From positions 1 to 52,950 of the forward strand of contig QCQA01000008.1 in NCBI GenBank assembly GCA_003212335.1: a stretch of DNA of 52,950 nucleotides, read 5' to 3'. The DNA is from SAR86 cluster bacterium AG-447-A08 (GTDB taxonomy: Bacteria; Pseudomonadota; Gammaproteobacteria; Magnimaribacterales; Magnimaribacteraceae). Shown here in pieces: positions 3,008-10,171 of this stretch. The notes beneath the pieces were generated by a model that saw only the letters and a list, made by a program, of their open reading frames with translations, did not search any database and was not told the origin of the DNA. The position numbers and the translations under genes were made by a program. Positions within the stretch are counted from its first letter, which is position 1. Every line of letters starts with the position of its first letter.

Positions 3008-3301
3008 ATGCTTGATGGAAGAGCCAAAAAAATTATAGCTTTCTTAAAGGATAAACTTGCTGAAGAGACTGAGCCTTCAAGAAACATGCTTAAAACTTAC
3101 TCTGACTACATAAAAGATGAGGCAACTGACGAAGATTTAGAAAAAGCAAATAACCAGTTGAACGAATTACTTAAAGATTTGAGCTTAGGTCTCATGACAG
3201 TGATTCCTTTTGCACCAATAACTATTCCTATGATCGCAAAATTTGCCAAGAAATATGATATCGATCTTCTGCCCGAATGGTTTAAAGATACTCTCAAGTG
3301 A
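3008..3301 (+). CDS. Small protein of unknown function (97 aa)
   Basis: Mostly helical and charged for the first 60 residues (LKDKLAEETEPSRNMLKTY, then a glutamate/lysine-rich helix). A hydrophobic stretch follows (LGLMTVIPFAPITIPMIAKF), then a tail containing LLPEWF. The hydrophobic segment and the LLP-aromatic tail recall the ribosome-binding domain of LETM1-like proteins, but the likeness is weak and the protein is short. It is divergent from nth and convergent with the 3304 gene, with two bases between stops. A -10-like TATACT suggests leaderless expression. Confidence 0.7.
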   Translation: MLDGRAKKIIAFLKDKLAEETEPSRNMLKTYSDYIKDEATDEDLEKANNQLNELLKDLSLGLMTVIPFAPITIPMIAKFAKKYDIDLLPEWFKDTLK

Positions 3302-3303
3302 TG

Positions 3304-3606
3304 TCATTTTCTATTTTTTGAATAGTTTTCATTATCGAATTGTTTTTTGGTTATGTTGTCTGCCTTAACTGCGAACATATTGTTATTCTTTAGACTTGTA
3401 AAAACAAAAACTCCAATATTACTTGCTATCAACTCACTGCCCCATATCAAACTGTAAGTTTTATACAGCAATATAACATTCGCTTCACTATCTCCATTGA
3501 TTTCTACATCTCTGTCTATTTCTAGAACATTTACCCAAATATCATCTTTGTGCTTGTTTAAAAAATAGAACTCTGTTCCTTTTCTTGCACAGTAAATATT
3601 GAACAT
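3304..3606 (-). CDS. Hypothetical protein (100 aa)
   Basis: I do not recognise a family. The sequence alternates short hydrophobic and polar stretches, as in a small beta-rich soluble protein, and ends in a basic Asn/Lys-rich tail. There is no signal peptide or membrane helix. An AGGAG ribosome site lies ten bases upstream of the ATG at 3606, which supports a real gene. It follows the PD-(D/E)XK nuclease gene on the same strand after 71 bases, so it may be co-transcribed with it from the dyad-bearing promoter at 4407-4501. Confidence 0.65.
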   Translation of the reverse strand: MFNIYCARKGTEFYFLNKHKDDIWVNVLEIDRDVEINGDSEANVILLYKTYSLIWGSELIASNIGVFVFTSLKNNNMFAVKADNITKKQFDNENYSKNRK

Positions 3607-3677
3607 TTAAATATACTCCTGTAAGGCTCTTATTCATTATTTAAGAGATATGGTTCTTGGTAGTTTTTAAGAAAATC

Positions 3678-4406
3678 TTAGGCTACCAAACTGTTTTCTA
3701 CATATTTACAGAGTTCACAGTCTTGATGTGAAGCAGGTGCTGTATTAGAAAGCAAACACTGCTTAATATTCTTTAAAGTAGGTTCGACCCAATGGTCATT
3801 ACCTTTGTATGGGATAAGTTTGACCTTGAAATTCAGACGATTATTAAAGCTCTCTTCGTCTTTGATCCCATTGCAGTAGACAAAATATCCTGTATTTGAA
3901 ACTTTAAAGCCATTACCTCTAAGGAGCCATTGATAAAATTCAATTTGTTTCTTATATCCATCTTGCCAATCTGCATCTATGTTTACCTCTCCTTTTTTAG
4001 AAGTTGCTTTATAGTCAACAACAATCAATTCATCAGTTTTTTTATCTATCCAAACATCATCAAGCCCGCCTCTAAGGAGCAGGTTTGTAGGTTCATGATA
4101 CCTTTTTACACCTTTCCTTAATGATTCGCGCCAATCATCCAAATCAGGATGTTCAAATGGTATGGCATCAATGCCGTTTTCAATTTGTATTGGATGTGAT
4201 TCTTTATTTTTTCTATAAGCATCAAACTCATTTTTTAAGAGTTCATCTACTGCATTATTTAAGTTAAAAGGGAAAGAGGGTGGTTTTTTTATACCTAATC
4301 TCTGCGTTTTATAGAAACACTTGGGACAATCAAGAAAGTTATGAACTCTTGTTCTGCTTAATACATAAGGTTCATTTGTATTTGGATTAAAAATTGTTTT
4401 ACTCAT
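3678..4406 (-). CDS. PD-(D/E)XK nuclease family protein with paired CxxC motifs
   Basis: Predicted metal-dependent DNA nuclease of the RecB/Cas4-like PD-(D/E)XK fold. The active site is visible as GGLDDVW (D116/D117), then VVDYKAT (D131, K133), followed by the Q154-x3-Y158 motif (QIEFY). Two cysteine pairs, C27-x2-C30 (CPKC) and C230-x2-C233 (CELC), bracket the domain and could bind zinc or an iron-sulfur cluster. Cas4 and AddB instead use one cysteine before and three after the core. From memory it resembles a widespread small nuclease family of unassigned role. AGGAG precedes the ATG. It is divergent from the WYL regulator across a 17-bp dyad. Confidence 0.85.
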   Translation of the reverse strand: MSKTIFNPNTNEPYVLSRTRVHNFLDCPKCFYKTQRLGIKKPPSFPFNLNNAVDELLKNEFDAYRKNKESHPIQIENGIDAIPFEHPDLDDWRESLRKGVKRYHEPTNLLLRGGLDDVWIDKKTDELIVVDYKATSKKGEVNIDADWQDGYKKQIEFYQWLLRGNGFKVSNTGYFVYCNGIKDEESFNNRLNFKVKLIPYKGNDHWVEPTLKNIKQCLLSNTAPASHQDCELCKYVENSLVA

Positions 4407-4462
4407 AATTGCTCTCCTAAAAACTTGATAGATTTTTTATTCTTTTAGTTTAATATATTTAA

Positions 4463-4479
4463 ACGACATCTAATGTCGT
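4463..4479. promoter_or_regulatory. 17-bp perfect dyad, candidate WYL operator, copy 1
   Basis: ACGACATCTAATGTCGT: two 7-base arms that are exact reverse complements around a 3-base centre. It lies in the divergent promoter region between the nuclease and WYL genes and touches a TATAAA -10 (4479-4484) for the WYL gene. Its reverse complement recurs at 5543-5559 with a single mismatch at the last base. Repression by the WYL protein is inferred from position and from known WYL regulators that bind inverted repeats. Confidence 0.8.
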
Positions 4480-4484
4480 ATAAA
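4479..4484 (+). promoter_or_regulatory. Probable -10 element of the WYL regulator gene
   Basis: TATAAA ends 17 bases before the ATG at 4502 and begins at the last base of the dyad. Protein bound to the dyad would cover the promoter spacer, which suggests autorepression. The -35 is weak. Confidence 0.4.
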
Positions 4485-4501
4485 AATCCTAAAAATAACT
4501 T

Positions 4502-5503
4502 ATGTCACAAGAAACGAGTATTAGACTTATAAAGTTACTAACTTATATACCTAAATATCCAGCCAAGCGTTCATTAAGTAACTTTAAGGAACACTTGGAA
4601 TCATTAGGTTACGAAGTAACTGACCGAACTATTCAAAGAGATCTTCTTAAGTTAGAGAAGTATTTTCCCCTATTATGCGATGATAGAAATCCTCCTTATG
4701 GCTGGTCCTGGCAGGAGGATGCTAAAGAAATTAATCTATCAGCTATGGATAAAGTTGAGGCTCTATCTTTATCTTTGGCAGAAAAATATTTAGAACCTTT
4801 AATGCCGATAGAAAACTATGAAAGGATAAGGAACCTTTTCGATAGAGCAAATAATACCCTCGAAAGCTCTGAACAAAGTCAGTTAAAAAAATGGAGAGAT
4901 CGGGTAAGAGTACTTCCTCAATCTCAGAGACTTGAACCCCCGTTAATTAATCAGGAAGTTCAATCTAATATCTATGATGCACTTTTGCATGGGGAGCAGT
5001 TGGATGTTCAATACTTAAAAGCAAATAGCAGGCTCCAGGAAAAAAGAACAGTAAACCCTTTGGGTATTGTCCTAATGGGAATTGTACACAGATTGATATG
5101 CACCATGGATCCTGACTTCAAAATCATAAGACATCTTCCATTGCATAGATTTAAAACTGCTAATGCTAATGGTGAAACAAGCATTGAACCTGAAAATTTT
5201 GATATAGATGATTATTTAGACAAAGAGAGCCTAAGCTTTCTTAGAACGGAAAAAAAAATAAAAATTGAACTATTGTTCAGAGGTAATACAGGATTTCATT
5301 TGTCGGAGACTCCGGTAAGTAAGGATCAGAAATACAAAGAAGAAAAGAATGGAAAAATTAGAATCTCTGGGACTGTTGCTGATACTGAACAGTTGCGTTG
5401 GTGGATACTTGGCTTCGGAGAAAATGTAGAAGTAATAAAACCAAAAATTTTAAGAGATGAGATTTCTAAACGTATTAAATTAGCAAGCGCTATCTATAAG
5501 TGA
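4502..5503 (+). CDS. WYL-domain transcriptional regulator (HTH-WYL-WCX)
   Basis: Predicted DNA-binding regulator. Residues 1-75 form a winged helix-turn-helix with recognition helix DRTIQRDLLKLEK. Residues about 150-245 form the WYL domain, in which the name motif is degenerate (V195-H-R-L) but the flanking RTVNPLGIV and IIRHLPLHRF segments fit. The C-terminal 80 residues look like the WCX extension. Length 333 aa is typical of the BrxR/CapW-type architecture known to repress phage-defence operons. Its own promoter and that of the next operon each carry the same dyad, so autoregulation plus control of neighbours is likely. The ligand is unknown. Confidence 0.9.
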   Translation: MSQETSIRLIKLLTYIPKYPAKRSLSNFKEHLESLGYEVTDRTIQRDLLKLEKYFPLLCDDRNPPYGWSWQEDAKEINLSAMDKVEALSLSLAEKYLEPLMPIENYERIRNLFDRANNTLESSEQSQLKKWRDRVRVLPQSQRLEPPLINQEVQSNIYDALLHGEQLDVQYLKANSRLQEKRTVNPLGIVLMGIVHRLICTMDPDFKIIRHLPLHRFKTANANGETSIEPENFDIDDYLDKESLSFLRTEKKIKIELLFRGNTGFHLSETPVSKDQKYKEEKNGKIRISGTVADTEQLRWWILGFGENVEVIKPKILRDEISKRIKLASAIYK

Positions 5504-5542
5504 ATAGCAGTTTGCATAAGGATTATTTTTTAGAGCATTTTT

Positions 5543-5559
5543 ACGACATTAGATGTCGC
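5543..5559. promoter_or_regulatory. 17-bp dyad, candidate WYL operator, copy 2 (inverted)
   Basis: ACGACATTAGATGTCGC is the reverse complement of the 4463 dyad except for the final base, leaving perfect 6-base arms (5544-5558). It lies 42 bases upstream of the ATG at 5601 and just ahead of a TATACT -10 at 5570-5575, where a bound repressor would block the -35 and spacer. Confidence 0.8.
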
Positions 5560-5569
5560 TTACGAAGGT

Positions 5570-5575
5570 TATACT
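5570..5575 (+). promoter_or_regulatory. Probable -10 element of the 5601/5947 operon
   Basis: TATACT lies 11 bases downstream of the second dyad. A transcript starting about 7 bases later would leave a leader of about 19 bases containing GGAG at 5588-5591, well placed for the ATG at 5601. Confidence 0.4.
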
Positions 5576-5600
5576 TTCATAAAAATTGGAGTCAAACCTT

Positions 5601-5963
5601 ATGAATAAAAGAGAAGACACAGCACTGGAATTATGTGCTGAAATATGTGATTTCAGAAATCGATTATTAGAGAAATTCGAAGAAGAGGAAGTTTATACAT
5701 CTTTATTATGGGTTAGTTCTTTGATGTTTATGAGTTCTTCAAATAATTTATCAGAGGCAAAAACAGAAGCTTTTAGGGCTGCAAAGGCTTCTTTTAAAGA
5801 AGAGCTAGATAGAAGAAATAAGGAAAATATTCTAAAAGCTAAGACTTATATCGATAGAAAAAATTTTTTACCTAGAGATAATATTTGCGAGATACTTGAT
5901 TTTTCTCAATATAAAAGGACAAATATAAAAGATAAAAAAGTTAAGAATGAACGAACTAAGTAA
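5601..5963 (+). CDS. Hypothetical protein (120 aa), first gene of the dyad-controlled operon
   Basis: Unrecognised small soluble protein, predicted almost entirely helical, with a hydrophobic core helix (YTSLLWVSSLMFM) and a strongly basic C-terminus (repeated KD, KK and RTK). I chose ATG 5601 because GGAG lies nine bases upstream; an in-frame TTG at 5586 would remove that site from the leader. The 3' end overlaps the start of the 450-aa gene by 17 bases, so the two are translationally coupled and probably act together. The base composition is markedly AT-rich. Confidence 0.75.
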   Translation: MNKREDTALELCAEICDFRNRLLEKFEEEEVYTSLLWVSSLMFMSSSNNLSEAKTEAFRAAKASFKEELDRRNKENILKAKTYIDRKNFLPRDNICEILDFSQYKRTNIKDKKVKNERTK

Positions 5964-7299
5964 TAATATTTCAGATTTATTATTGAAATATAGATCCGTT
6001 ATCAGGCCTATTCTAGAGAAAGTAAGTAGGGAAAAAGTAGAAGAATTTCCTAAGATTAGTGATTTAAGAAATCTTGGAGATAGATATGATAATTTTCTTA
6101 CTGAATTGGAAATTATTTCTTTGAAGAATGAAACTTATACAGGGGTTTATGAACTTTTAAAAGAGTATAAACATCATTTACCGCCAGTCAGGACTACCAG
6201 GCAACAAAAGATAATAAGAATATTTTCAAAGAACAACAAAAGTAAAGAAGATTTCTTTAAAGGAGGTGCTAGCAAAATAAGTCAAAATCTACTCAAGGAA
6301 TTCAGCCAAGGAGAAGAAGGAGTCGTAAAGAAAATATATGAGTTGTGTAAACAAGCTGATATTTATCCAGTAGAGTTTGATAGATTATTCTATTTAATCG
6401 GTAGTGGTAGATTCTCGGGCTTAGGAGATTTAGAGAATGATGATTTCAAGAATGAAACCTTACGTAAAGGTGTCTACCAGCCTTCTGGAAAAAATAGAAT
6501 AGATATATATCTAAACTTTTTCGGTTCTTTTAAAAACAATATTGAAAAAAACTTTAACTCATTTACCTTTAAAGAAATGAAATCATGGGTCCTTAATCAC
6601 TACAATGAAGGACTCATTGAAAAACAGTTAGACTTCGATGATATAGATAGCTTCATTCACCACTCTTATTCTCCGAGTTTGTTGGAAGATGAGTTTCCTT
6701 CTGAAAACGCTCTGATTGAGCATCTGATACGTAATCGATATGCTTCTGGGGCTCCACACAAACCGGATGATGTAACTATCACCGTTGAAGCTCTCCAAAA
6801 ATATTTTAAATTGAATGAAAACCTTTCAATTAAAGAAATGCAAGAAAGAGCTTCTTTATTTGTAAAAGAAGAAAAATATTCTTCATTAACATTAAAAAAT
6901 CAGAAGGGAAACGACGGAAATTTGACTAAAGATATTAACTTATTATTTGATGCATATGATTTTATAAGAAAGAAGTGCGGCGGTTCTATGGAGAATTTTT
7001 ATAATGAAATTTCGATGAAGACTATAGATGAAGCAAGCAATATGGAATCTTATGAAGGGTCATTTATTGAGCTTGTAAAAGAAATATCAAACTGGAAGCA
7101 TTACAGTTTCGCTCTCTCTGCTAACTTTATAAAAGACTATCAATTAACCAGAGAATTAAGAGGCTTACCAAAGTCTGATTGGAAATTTAAATTTGCTTCG
7201 TATACAACAAAGCCCGACCTCCATCTCATAAATTTCACAAGTTTCCTGTCAAATAGGACGCTCTTAGATAAATTTCTAGAGAATAGATTGAATAATTAG
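5947..7299 (+). CDS. Hypothetical protein (450 aa) of the dyad-controlled operon
   Basis: I do not recognise any family. It is a charged, mostly helical soluble protein with no signal peptide, membrane helix or obvious nuclease, ATPase or helicase motif. A basic linker (RTTRQQKIIRIFSKNNK, near residues 82-98) separates a helical N-terminal part from the rest. Visible segments that could be searched as signatures are HLIRNRYASGAPHKPDDV and the C-terminal KFASYTTKPDLHLINF. It overlaps the 120-aa gene upstream by 17 bases. Hand counting rows 5941-6120 gives 47 G/C of 180, against 48 of 120 in gyrA rows 47161-47280, which hints at foreign origin. Confidence 0.8.
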   Translation: MNELSNNISDLLLKYRSVIRPILEKVSREKVEEFPKISDLRNLGDRYDNFLTELEIISLKNETYTGVYELLKEYKHHLPPVRTTRQQKIIRIFSKNNKSKEDFFKGGASKISQNLLKEFSQGEEGVVKKIYELCKQADIYPVEFDRLFYLIGSGRFSGLGDLENDDFKNETLRKGVYQPSGKNRIDIYLNFFGSFKNNIEKNFNSFTFKEMKSWVLNHYNEGLIEKQLDFDDIDSFIHHSYSPSLLEDEFPSENALIEHLIRNRYASGAPHKPDDVTITVEALQKYFKLNENLSIKEMQERASLFVKEEKYSSLTLKNQKGNDGNLTKDINLLFDAYDFIRKKCGGSMENFYNEISMKTIDEASNMESYEGSFIELVKEISNWKHYSFALSANFIKDYQLTRELRGLPKSDWKFKFASYTTKPDLHLINFTSFLSNRTLLDKFLENRLNN

Positions 7300-7396
7300 T
7301 TTGATGATTCGAGTTTATTTAACTAAAGGAAAATAAGCTCCATTAGTATCAAATTTGCAATCTATTGCTTACATCTCTATTCAAAATTATTTATTC

Positions 7397-7407
7397 ACAC
7401 TAAGTGT
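7397..7407. promoter_or_regulatory. Short palindrome in the gap before the LRV-like gene
   Basis: ACACTAAGTGT is a perfect 5+1+5 palindrome 50 bases upstream of the ATG at 7458. It is followed by AAGATA...TATCTT (a 6-base inverted repeat around 7421-7436). Either could be an operator or a chance match; there is no second copy to support it. Confidence 0.2.
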
Positions 7408-7457
7408 TTGATATTTAAAGAAGATAAGAATATCTTAATAAAAAAAAGGAGATAAAA

Positions 7458-7988
7458 ATGAAAACAATTTTAGGTTTAGAATTTGATGGAGAAACACTAG
7501 GAGTGGAGTTAGGGTTTGATGGTCTTCAAAACATCATTTACTACATTCCAGATACTGAAGAAAATACTCAAATTTTTTCTGCATTAGCAAAACATCCATC
7601 TGCTGGAGTTAGAGCTGCGGTAGCAGACAAACAGAATTTAGATGATGAGACTGTTATGCTATTAGCTGATGATAATGACCCTAACGTATCAAGAGGGATC
7701 CCATATAACGAGACTTTTAAGAATCTCGTAACTCTAGAACAAATTAAGAAAATGTTAGAAAAAGAGAACGATGCATCTATAAGCATAATTAATTATGCAG
7801 GCACCTTTATGAAAGTAAGTGTAGAAGAAGTTGAGCAGGCAATAAAGGATGCTGATATAAAAGATCCTGTTATATTGATGGAGGCTGCTCGGAGTTATGA
7901 TTTGTCTTCAGAATATATTGAAGAATTAACTCAGCATCCTGATGTTTCAGTAGCGAACGCAGCAAAAGAAACTTTAAAAAATAGGTAA
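7458..7988 (+). CDS. Leucine-rich-repeat-variant / HEAT-like repeat protein (176 aa)
   Basis: After a 40-residue N-terminal part, the middle carries a repeat unit typical of LRV/HEAT-like solenoids: LAKHPSAGVRAAVADKQNL followed by LLADDNDPNVSRGI. The C-terminus ends with a related unit, LTQHPDVSVANAAKETL. Such short alpha solenoids usually bind proteins; no enzyme motif is visible. A strong AGGAG site precedes the ATG. The 158-base gap upstream contains an 11-base palindrome (7397-7407) but no copy of the WYL dyad, so control may differ from the 5601 operon. The next gene starts 18 bases downstream. Confidence 0.8.
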   Translation: MKTILGLEFDGETLGVELGFDGLQNIIYYIPDTEENTQIFSALAKHPSAGVRAAVADKQNLDDETVMLLADDNDPNVSRGIPYNETFKNLVTLEQIKKMLEKENDASISIINYAGTFMKVSVEEVEQAIKDADIKDPVILMEAARSYDLSSEYIEELTQHPDVSVANAAKETLKNR

Positions 7989-8006
7989 TTATCGAAAATA
8001 GTTCGT

Positions 8007-9506
8007 ATGAACGAATGGGAAGATGAATTTGACGACGATGACTTTGATGCTGAGGAGTGGTTAGAGAATAACATCACTATAAATGGCCAACCGATAAGTT
8101 TTGATGGATCAAATTCACAAGAACGAAGTCTAATAGCTGAACTGTTGGATGATGCTATTACGGGAGCAGTTGCTGGAACATCAAGCTTATTCAAAAAAGC
8201 GAAAAATGCTATAGCTTCTAGATCAACGAGAGAGGTAACGAATAAAAATGAAGAGGAAGAAATAATGACTGAAAAAGATCCCTCACTAAAAGAAATATTT
8301 ACCTCCATGCAAAAGGAGTTAAGGGAAGAGATAAAAGAAGCCGGAGGTTTTGAATTCACTTCTAAAAAATTCGGTCAAACATTTAATTTAGAAAATAATT
8401 TATTAAATGATCAAGGTGAGTTGAACCTGGAAGGAGAAGGAACCATTTACGCATGGATAATTGCTTATATAACTAAAGAGGAATGGTTAGCTGATAGAGA
8501 TTTAGAGGCAAAAGAGTTACATGCTCTTTTTAGGCAACTAGTAAATAGCTGTGGTATTTATGGGCACCAAATAGGTTTGCGCATTTCTAATTTCATTGAG
8601 TATGCAACTGCTATGGAAGACCCCTTTATGATTGATCAAGTAATGATTTTATCTCTTGAAGAAGAGTATTCTGATTTAGAAATCAATAGAGAAATGGCGG
8701 AATCCCTAGTTGAAAACCTATCGGGTGAAGGACTTTCTTTGCTTATGAAAGAAAATTTGTCAGCTTATTTAGTAGATCAAGAAATTAAAAAAGATCTCTA
8801 TTACGAAGATAAATACGCTTGGATACAGAAAATAAAAGATGCTTTAAATGAATATATATCTAAAGATCACTCCATCAAATCTAATGCCCTGAAAGATTCT
8901 AAGAAAGATTTGAAATCAGATAAACCGGAAAAGAACAAACAAACACAAGCAACATCTGCTAACGAAATAGCTAAAAAATTATTCGAAGGAAATACAATGA
9001 ATAAAAAAAAGAAACCTAAAACTTCAGGTTCGCCAGCTGAAATGGCAAAAGGCTTATTTCAGCAATTAGAATCTGATAAACAAAATAAAGAAAACCAGAA
9101 AGAAGATAAAAATTTACCTGAAAGCTACTTTGATGATCGAATTACTCCGGGTATAGAGTTATCAGTCTTTGACTTTAACGAAGATAATTATGAGCTTGGA
9201 GCCAAAACATTACTTTGTATTTTACTAAAACACTTTACTCAAAAAGAGTTTGATCCGGATAAGCTTCAATCTGATGACTTGTTGTTACATTTATCTGATT
9301 TTGACGAGATGATAGTAAAGAATTTAAGCGTCAATGTTTGCAACCATATGCAAGAAATAGGCAGCCTGACTAATCCAGAAATCCACTTTACTCCTGATGA
9401 TCTGAGTGATTTAAAAGTGGAGCATGTAGTTTTGTATGTACAGGATATGGTAAATGATCCTGAATCAGCTTATGTGAGTATGATTCAAGACAAAATTTCT
9501 GAGTAA
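8007..9506 (+). CDS. Hypothetical acidic multidomain protein (499 aa)
   Basis: Unrecognised. The first 18 residues are extremely acidic (MNEWEDEFDDDDFDAEEW). Residues about 95-290 form a helical domain, residues 290-370 a Lys/Gln/Asn-rich disordered linker, and residues 375-499 a second globular domain. Inside the linker a short motif occurs twice, 25 residues apart: SANEIAKKLF (317-326) and SPAEMAKGLF (342-351), like a repeated docking peptide. No signal peptide or convincing membrane helix is present. It follows the LRV-like gene by 18 bases, suggesting that the solenoid and this protein are partners. An internal ATG at residue 87 is a possible second start. Confidence 0.75.
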   Translation: MNEWEDEFDDDDFDAEEWLENNITINGQPISFDGSNSQERSLIAELLDDAITGAVAGTSSLFKKAKNAIASRSTREVTNKNEEEEIMTEKDPSLKEIFTSMQKELREEIKEAGGFEFTSKKFGQTFNLENNLLNDQGELNLEGEGTIYAWIIAYITKEEWLADRDLEAKELHALFRQLVNSCGIYGHQIGLRISNFIEYATAMEDPFMIDQVMILSLEEEYSDLEINREMAESLVENLSGEGLSLLMKENLSAYLVDQEIKKDLYYEDKYAWIQKIKDALNEYISKDHSIKSNALKDSKKDLKSDKPEKNKQTQATSANEIAKKLFEGNTMNKKKKPKTSGSPAEMAKGLFQQLESDKQNKENQKEDKNLPESYFDDRITPGIELSVFDFNEDNYELGAKTLLCILLKHFTQKEFDPDKLQSDDLLLHLSDFDEMIVKNLSVNVCNHMQEIGSLTNPEIHFTPDDLSDLKVEHVVLYVQDMVNDPESAYVSMIQDKISE

Positions 9507-9556
9507 GAAATTACAAAATTAAAGGCTACAGAAGCTTTGTAAATGTAAAAATTTTA

Positions 9557-10171
9557 CTAACCACCCTTTTTATTTGAGTATAAAAATAAGTAGATGCCAG
9601 AAAGAGCACTTAACAAAGCCAATATAGAAAACACTTTCAGAAAAATATTACCTATGTTGTCTCTCTCATTCCAATCCATGATGTGTATACCCCACATAAA
9701 GTCCCAAATTCTCCACTGATTTGATCTTATAGCTACTATCTTTTCTGAGTAGGGATCTAAGTAGACATTAATTTTTTCATCCTCTTCGCTAAGAGCTTCA
9801 ATCTTGTATAAAGGTAAGGGCCTTCCTCTATATTCTGAGCCCGGTTGATCTTCTGTTATTTCTAAAACCTCAACAGGGTTTAGAAAAGTCTTATCAGAGA
9901 CGATCGATAAGGCTCGTTTCGGGTCTATCTTATTGCTTCTAGGGGTTTCTATCACTTCAGTCGATTTCAAGTATTGACTGCCCCTAACATCCTCAATTTT
10001 ATTAAAGGAAAAATAGATGCCCGATATGGTCCATAACAAGAGTTGAACCGAAATAGCTAAACTCAGATACTTATGTATCTTTCTTGAGGACCTTATCAAG
10101 ATTTTATTTTTATATCGCTTTTTGTAGTTTAGAAGCAATAATATCTTCAGCTTCAGACATAATTCGATCAA
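9557..10171 (-). CDS. PepSY-associated transmembrane protein
   Basis: Membrane protein with an N-terminal helix (SLAISVQLLLWTISGIYF), a periplasmic PepSY-like region of about 100 residues (including INVYLDPYSEKIVAIRS) and a C-terminal helix (VFSILALLSALSGIYLFLY). This is the layout of small PepSY_TM proteins often found with redox or iron systems; the exact role is unknown. The ATG at 10171 makes it overlap the upstream oxidoreductase by 62 bases. Recognisable family sequence begins near residue 30 (RKIHKYL), so an internal TTG at 10099, just past the upstream stop, may be the real start. Neither has a good ribosome site. Confidence 0.8.
   Translation of the reverse strand: MIELCLKLKILLLLNYKKRYKNKILIRSSRKIHKYLSLAISVQLLLWTISGIYFSFNKIEDVRGSQYLKSTEVIETPRSNKIDPKRALSIVSDKTFLNPVEVLEITEDQPGSEYRGRPLPLYKIEALSEEDEKINVYLDPYSEKIVAIRSNQWRIWDFMWGIHIMDWNERDNIGNIFLKVFSILALLSALSGIYLFLYSNKKGG

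What the first reader, a model, noticed from the sequence alone, without database searches (positions are those of the whole stretch)
3304..7299. WYL-regulated module defined by two mirror-image 17-bp dyads
The sequence shows ACGACATCTAATGTCGT at 4463 in the divergent nuclease/WYL promoter and its reverse complement (one end mismatch) at 5543 ahead of an unknown two-gene operon. Both touch or adjoin -10-like hexamers. WYL regulators of the BrxR/CapW type are known to repress phage-defence operons through inverted repeats. I infer one regulon: PD-(D/E)XK nuclease, 100-aa protein, WYL regulator, 120-aa and 450-aa unknowns. This composition matches no defence system I can name.
Basis: partly seen in the sequence, partly recalled or inferred. 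Interest (0 to 1): 0.82.

Follow-up and report, generated by a model that had tools for sequence, protein, structure and literature searches.

The report
DriD-type switch for exchangeable defence genes
An uncultured marine bacterium carries a gene island whose regulator probably senses damaged or invading DNA and switches on a nuclease and a swappable set of unknown genes through two matching DNA sites, laid out as in a known Caulobacter DNA-damage activator rather than as in the known phage-defence repressors.

Summary
The two dyads are real (4463-4479, 5543-5559). The genome belongs to the SAR86 order. The dyad, ACGAC-N7-GTCGT, has the half-sites and spacing of Caulobacter DriD, an ssDNA-activated WYL activator. 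Over 203 genomes of the order, CGACAN5TGTCG occurs in 21 of 29 with a WYL homologue and 16 of 174 without. A -10-like hexamer lies exactly 10 nt past the dyad in 46 of 87 gene-facing orientations (16 of 26 target families; background 3.6%), with poor -35s. 'Mirror-image' means one promoter design used once per strand. The island runs about 3302-9556; the site is empty in 16 of 18 relatives fetched. Cargo between p120 and p176 is exchangeable: p450 here, an OGG-like protein in G013, only a p100 paralogue in G014. Further sites face a 5'-nucleotidase divergent from lexA, and an exonuclease gene. WYL homologues lie near Hma and Ssp defence genes. A paralogous clade has switched operator (ACGTC-N7-GACGT) together with one recognition-helix residue. 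DNA binding, activation, the ssDNA signal and anti-phage action are inferred.

The parts
3304..3606 (-). p100, 100-aa unknown; a family that recurs in related islands
   Evidence: homologues in L014, L153, L154, L155
3678..4406 (-). PD-(D/E)XK nuclease, Cas4/RecB-like (GGLDD...VVDYK; Cys at 27/30 and 230/233)
   Evidence: Pfam PDDEXK_1 3.6e-10; residues read; a 64-71% identical chromosomal copy in 28 of 35 family genomes (my count)
4447..4452 (-). -10-like hexamer TAAACT of the nuclease promoter, 10 nt from dyad 1
   Evidence: same hexamer and offset in G013 (L014)
4463..4479 (.). dyad 1, ACGAC-N7-GTCGT operator between nuclease and WYL genes
   Evidence: DriD consensus in passages of PMC12340889
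4502..5503 (+). WYL/WCX regulator, 333 aa, DriD-like
5543..5559 (.). dyad 2, operator of the p120 operon
   Evidence: dyad at the same place in G013 and G014
5570..5575 (+). -10-like hexamer TATACT, 10 nt from dyad 2
   Evidence: TATAAT in G013 and TATACT in G014 at the same offset
5601..5963 (+). p120 (125 aa from TTG 5586), unknown; first gene behind dyad 2
   Evidence: 3 of 35 family genomes (G000, G013, G014)
5947..7299 (+). p450, unknown cargo protein
   Evidence: 1 of 35 family genomes; 33% identical homologue in G126
7458..7988 (+). p176; LRV repeat match just below cut-off; homologues in G013, G014, G126
8007..9506 (+). p499, unknown; 92% identical in G013 and G014, 54% in G126
3302..9556 (.). 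extent of the inserted island, between p97 and p204
   Evidence: p97 followed directly by p204 or by the 323-aa gene in 16 of 18 nth flanks fetched

Best explanation
The locus is a variable genomic island run by a DriD-type WYL regulator. The WYL dimer binds ACGAC-N7-GTCGT sites that cover the -35 position, 10 nt before a -10 hexamer, and activates promoters that lack a usable -35. Here it drives (i) a Cas4/RecB-like nuclease, probably with p100, (ii) the p120-p450-p176-p499 operon, whose second position is an exchangeable cargo slot, and (iii) outside the island, a 5'-nucleotidase gene divergent from lexA. By analogy with DriD, PafBC and CapW the trigger is ssDNA from damage or phage replication, and the output is DNA degradation and nucleotide turnover against invading or damaged DNA. 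Shown by computation: the sites, their link to the WYL family, the fixed spacing, cargo exchange and empty sites. Inferred: dimer, binding, activation, the ssDNA signal, operon structure and the anti-phage role.
For: Half-sites and spacing of DriD's ATACGAC(X)7GTCGTAT. Motif in 21 of 29 genomes with and 16 of 174 without a WYL homologue (Fisher 1.4e-12, relatedness not corrected); 38 of 47 sites in WYL genomes within 12.5 kb of the WYL gene. Offset of 10 nt in 46 of 87 gene-facing orientations, background 3.6%; 16 of 26 target families; 1 of 20 orientations of sites inside frames, and that one (L016) faces a WYL gene. Best -35 match 1 to 3 of 6 in 49 such sites. DriD sites lie a fixed distance from the -10 over poor -35s. 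Nearest structures DriD, then PafBC. A paralogous clade (100/99) with ACGTC-N7-GACGT has Met for Thr in the recognition helix in 5 of 5 and its -10 at 9 nt in 9 of 14 orientations, at most 4 at any other offset 0-19. Island site empty in 16 of 18 flanks. Defence neighbours.
Against: G010, G011, G014 and G017 (51-79% complete) keep the site at the lexA/5'-nucleotidase region but show no WCX protein; G011, G014 and G017 have an empty island site. Against the 10-nt rule: only 6 of 16 orientations that face WYL genes have it, the window's own WYL promoter does not, lexA-facing 0 of 6, the 167/168-aa family 0 of 3, and 10 of 26 families none. The reversed control motif is nearly as frequent over all 203 genomes (58 places, my count, against 65). 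The N-terminal profile finds ArgR, not DriD. Foldseek TM-scores to DriD are only 0.41-0.46 for full-length chains (rmsd 16-19), so domain arrangement is not matched. Of the two WYL arginines that bind ssDNA in PafBC, the first reads Pro213 here by my alignment through DriD; Arg216 remains. Eight of 29 WYL genomes lack the exact motif, four of them with only the paralogous type. No expression data.
Confidence: 0.66

Rival explanations
1. One reading: a BrxR/CapW-type repressor that holds a defence island silent through operators over its promoters and lets go on infection.
For: WYL homologues lie near known defence genes (HmaA, HmaB, SspC, SspD); CapW/BrxR are ssDNA-responsive repressors of adjacent immune operons (passages of PMC13373217); dyad 1 touches a TATAAA in front of the WYL gene, so autorepression is possible.
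Against: Sequence and fold nearer to DriD and PafBC; fixed 10-nt spacing with no usable -35; the published BrxR operator is an 11-bp repeat with a 5-bp spacer, downstream of a -10 (passages of PMC9122601).
Confidence: 0.2
2. The module is a DNA-repair or stress regulon, not anti-phage defence; variability reflects ordinary accessory-gene exchange.
For: Sites at a 5'-nucleotidase beside lexA and at an exonuclease I-like gene; an OGG-like protein as cargo in G013; DriD itself controls damage-response genes (passages).
Against: Presence in a minority of genomes, empty sites and cargo exchange; Hma and Ssp near homologues.
Confidence: 0.3
3. The dyads are read by another factor (for example LexA) and the WYL gene is a passenger.
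For: Four genomes with the lexA-region site but no WCX protein.
Against: All 26 lexA upstream regions fetched carry a separate CTGT-N8-ACAG SOS box, only 6 of 26 the dyad; the motif stands before WYL genes in three families; operator and recognition helix change together.
Confidence: 0.08
4. Chance palindromes.
For: Of 18 sites in WYL-less genomes 10 lie inside genes; reversed control about as frequent overall.
Against: In the 29 WYL genomes 47 sites against 5 for the control (control my count); conserved positions and spacing.
Confidence: 0.01

Closest known systems
DriD of Caulobacter crescentus (WYL activator, SOS-independent DNA-damage response)
   Same: Half-sites and 7-bp spacing of the operator; WYL and WCX domains; operator over a poor -35 at fixed distance from the -10; nucleases among the targets
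   Different: 16-18% identity in structural alignment; N-terminal domain not matched by profile; here the targets are an exchangeable island, a 5'-nucleotidase and an exonuclease gene, in some relatives near defence genes; first PafB-type arginine missing
BrxR / CapW family of WYL repressors
   Same: WYL regulators next to phage-defence operons, inverted-repeat operators
   Different: Repressors; weaker fold match, no sequence match up to E 10; different operator layout
PafBC (mycobacteria)
   Same: ssDNA-triggered WYL/WCX activator; second-nearest structure
   Different: Heterodimer; here a single gene
Cas4 / PDDEXK_1 nucleases
   Same: PD-(D/E)XK core, Cys pairs near both ends
   Different: cas4 model 27.5 bits against a cut-off of 65; a CRISPR locus was not looked for beyond

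Membership tests
DriD-type WYL activators | Operator ATACGAC-N7-GTCGTAT | tested here: met
   Core ACGAC-N7-GTCG in both window sites; outer bases match only in part; consensus from passages of PMC12340889
DriD-type WYL activators | Site over a poor -35 at constant distance from the -10 | tested here: met
   (46 of 87 orientations, not all); DriD rule from section 11 of PMC12340889
DriD-type WYL activators | wHTH, three-helix bundle, WYL, WCX in one homodimeric chain | tested here: inconclusive
   WYL and WCX met; model pLDDT 77, pTM 0.45; DriD best Foldseek hit over 345 columns but TM 0.43-0.45; dimer not tested
DriD-type WYL activators | N-terminal domain recognisably like DriD's | tested here: not met
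   Profile of residues 1-79 finds arginine repressors, not DriD
DriD-type WYL activators | ssDNA binding by WYL-domain arginines | tested here: inconclusive
   Arg216 kept, the PafB Arg211 position reads Pro213
DriD-type WYL activators | Activates transcription after DNA damage | not testable with these tools
   Needs expression data
BrxR/CapW repressors | Sequence and fold kinship | tested here: not met
   Not among 17 hits up to E 10; fold E 7e-7 and weaker, behind DriD and PafBC
BrxR/CapW repressors | Adjacent to phage-defence operons | tested here: met
   HmaA, HmaB, SspC, SspD near homologues; in the window itself no known system
BrxR/CapW repressors | Repression relieved by ligand | not testable with these tools
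   Needs a reporter assay
Known anti-phage system (PADLOC models) | Module proteins match a defence model specifically | tested here: not met
   only WYL, Cas4, and partial Cas3c and Cas1g models for the WYL protein and the nuclease; p100, p120, p450, p176, p499 none
Cas4 | Above the curated cas4 cut-off | tested here: not met
   27.5 of 65 bits

The most novel reading that the evidence does not exclude
An order-wide WYL activator network in SAR86: a DriD-type, SOS-independent activator wired to interchangeable immune cargo and to host nucleotide and nuclease genes, with two insulated channels in the same cell (ACGAC-N7-GTCGT, 10 nt to the -10; ACGTC-N7-GACGT, 9 nt) separated by one operator base and one recognition-helix residue. 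Immunity would then be switched on by activation rather than by release of repression, and p450, p120, p176 and p499 would be new defence proteins.
Probability: 0.4. Interest if true: 0.82.

Novelty: new variant of a known kind. Interest (0 to 1): 0.62.

Why it matters
In the passages read, the WYL regulators tied to immune operons are repressors (CapW/BrxR) and DriD is an activator of chromosomal damage genes. Here the DriD operator and geometry mark exchangeable islands, some near known defence systems, in a mostly uncultured marine order. The rule 'dyad, 10 nt, -10' can be used to find further targets by computation, and the paired change of operator base and recognition-helix residue gives a direct test of WYL specificity.

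Tried and rejected
In one search the loci whose lexA lies on the minus strand were shown from the wrong side, being in contig orientation; one search repeats the check for all 26. Likewise read loci without turning them and was replaced.

p450 function: no Pfam, PHROGs or PADLOC match below E 0.01, no match in plasmids or viral contigs, one in genome contigs; the AlphaFold model from two sequences failed (pLDDT 40) and was not searched. Kinship of p450 to the OGG-like protein of G013 was tested and not found. Island ends: no direct repeat pairing the two ends among the 19 families listed in 3200-9800, and none of 14 nt within either end stretch; an integrase was not looked for beyond.

Counting choices: sites inside open frames of at least 130 codons were dropped, except L016, kept by hand because its frame is an over-long start of the WYL gene; L151, which one search places inside a gene near its start, passed the filter and has no hit. 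The G184 site was not read, and sites too near the end of a fetched stretch fell out. TA...T at offset 5 occurs in 17 of 87, the next highest. The totals 46, 48 and 49 differ between because of different edge and gene filters. Nth flanks were fetched for 18 of 24 relatives with a near-full nth hit.
Full report
What is there. Both dyads are as described; one further place in the genome comes within three mismatches, a tolerance at which the reversed control is as frequent. Around them lie p100 and a PD-(D/E)XK nuclease on the minus strand and a WYL/WCX regulator, p120, p450, p176 and p499 on the plus strand.

The operator. The dyad reads ACGAC-N7-GTCGT. The Caulobacter DriD consensus is given as ATACGAC(X)7GTCGTAT (passages of PMC12340889). 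In the direction of nuclease transcription dyad 1 reads ATACGACATTAGATGTCGTTT; in the direction of p120 transcription dyad 2 reads ACGACATTAGATGTCGC. The 'mirror image' is therefore one promoter design used once on each strand; a 49-nt inverted repeat covers dyad, spacer and -10.

Link to the WYL family. A WYL homologue occurs in 29 of 203 genomes of the order. The exact motif CGACAN5TGTCG occurs at 65 places in 37 genomes. It is in 21 of 29 genomes with and 16 of 174 without a WYL homologue (Fisher 1.4e-12, not corrected for relatedness), and 38 of 47 sites in WYL genomes lie within 12.5 kb of the WYL gene. The reversed control pattern occurs at 58 places overall but at 5 in the 29 WYL genomes (my counts from the table). 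Of the 18 sites in WYL-less genomes 10 lie inside genes, 7 are intergenic (lexA region of G010, G011, G014, G017; exonuclease gene and p125 homologue of G014; a broken nuclease homologue in G128) and one (G184) was not read.

Operator and reader change together. Five WYL proteins (second copy of G000, G012, G016, G028, G029) form one clade (100/99). CGTCAN5TGACG occurs at 7 places in 6 of 35 family genomes: these five, and G020, which has no WYL. The reversed control is more frequent here too (18 places, my count), so the evidence is position: in all five genomes the motif stands at the WYL or 119-aa gene (a second G012 place lies elsewhere). In all five the recognition helix reads R-M-I-Q-R where the 19 other close homologues read R-T-[IV]-Q-R. 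TA...T stands at 9 nt in 9 of 14 orientations, at most 4 at any other offset from 0 to 19.

Activator geometry. In 63 distinct contexts read both ways, TA...T at 10 nt past the dyad occurs in 38% of 126 orientations and in at most 12% at any other offset from 0 to 34. Among gene-facing orientations outside long frames it is 46 of 87, background 3.6%; 16 of 26 target families have it, and one row per family gives 13.5 of 26 on average against 0.95 expected. Orientations of sites inside frames have it in 1 of 20, that one (L016) facing a WYL gene. Ten families lack it; of WYL-facing orientations 6 of 16 have it, of lexA-facing ones 0 of 6. In 49 sites with it the best -35 match over spacers of 16-18 is 1 (14 sites), 2 (27) or 3 (8) of 6. 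DriD promoters follow the same rule: same distance from the -10, site over a poor -35 (section 11 of PMC12340889, read in full). A repressor would not need this.

Kinship of the regulator. A profile of 17 WYL proteins finds DriD (full-length chains 7e-10), then PafC (2e-4); BrxR and CapW are not among 17 hits up to E 10. The predicted model (pLDDT 77, pTM 0.45) matches DriD at 2.8e-14, PafBC 9.6e-13, CapW and BrxR 7e-7 and weaker, though TM-scores to full-length DriD are 0.41-0.46. Against DriD membership: the N-terminal profile finds ArgR, and only one of the two arginines that bind ssDNA in PafBC is kept.

The island. In the window p100 to p499 lie between p97 and p204. In 16 of 18 nth flanks fetched p97 is followed directly by p204 or by the 323-aa gene; one contig ends too early (L187) and one has another arrangement (L191). 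G013 has the island at the same place with both dyads. In G014 p125-p100-p176-p499 with a dyad lie elsewhere while the nth site is empty. The slot between p125 and p176 holds p450 (window), an OGG-like protein (PF21790, 8.8e-11) plus a p100 paralogue (G013), or a p100 paralogue alone (G014). A p450 homologue (33%) sits near a WYL gene with dyads in G126, with p176 and p499 homologues in the divergent gene row. That p120-p450-p176-p499 is one operon is inference; 158 nt separate p450 from p176.

Sites outside the island. Beside lexA the site faces a divergent 5'-nucleotidase (PF06189, 2.8e-115) with the -10 at 10 nt in 6 of 6 genomes; a canonical SOS box lies in all 26 lexA upstream regions fetched. 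In G013 and G014 a site with the same spacing precedes an exonuclease gene (PF08411 and RNase_T; 'exonuclease I' is the name I recall for this pair). Four of the six lexA-region genomes show no WCX protein; they are 51-79% complete, so loss and a missed gene cannot be told apart.

Defence context. Within a few kb of WYL homologues lie HmaA (2121.7 bits) and HmaB (G030), SspC and SspD (G009), and weaker GajB- and MzaB-like proteins (G053, G057); an Hhe-like protein below its cut-off lies near the G016 WYL gene.

Print. Searches for SAR86 with WYL, WYL activator with defence island and ssDNA, SAR86 with defence systems and DriD homologues in gammaproteobacteria listed no paper that by title describes such a system; only listings were seen, and most subscription journals are not held. 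Passages of PMC13373217 describe CapW/BrxR as ssDNA-responsive repressors.

Verdict. A new variant of a known kind: a DriD-like activator regulon carrying exchangeable, probably defensive, cargo. Confidence in the main reading was lowered from 0.68 to 0.66 on recheck, for the families without the 10-nt hexamer, the loose domain fit and the control counts.

Noticed in passing
G000:C1:50463-54795 (L021:6462-10798): Second WYL regulator of the same genome, upstream of a 1108-aa RecB-like nuclease/helicase (TIGR03491) and a 119-aa gene, with its own operator ACGTC-N7-GACGT and a -10-like hexamer at 9 nt.
   Followed up: partly
G000:C1:117913-118626 (L172:9811-10632): Chromosomal paralogue (64-65%) of the module nuclease, with uvrB-, cysS- and umuC-like neighbours (names recalled from sequence); a 64-71% copy is in 28 of 35 family genomes.
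   Followed up: partly
L153:12614-13531 and L155:10384-11292: Two proteins with a GIY-YIG-like motif (recalled; no Pfam hit for the L153 one) between the WYL gene and the dyad of a 168-aa gene.
   Followed up: no
L147:1501 (G128): Dyad kept before a nuclease homologue broken into two frames, in a genome without a detected WYL homologue: a likely remnant.
   Followed up: no
L168:3004-8988 (G154): Distant WYL island: a row of AAA ATPase, DUF2201 metallopeptidase/VWA-like, DUF4116, unknown and nuclease homologue behind one dyad divergent from WYL.
   Followed up: partly
Acinetobacter phage MD-2021a records: WYL homologues 32% identical over 94% of the query in two phage-labelled records, and one in an unnamed fecal phage record.
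   Followed up: no
L157:7624-8520, L016:1688-2752: RmuC-family genes directly downstream of WYL homologues.
   Followed up: no
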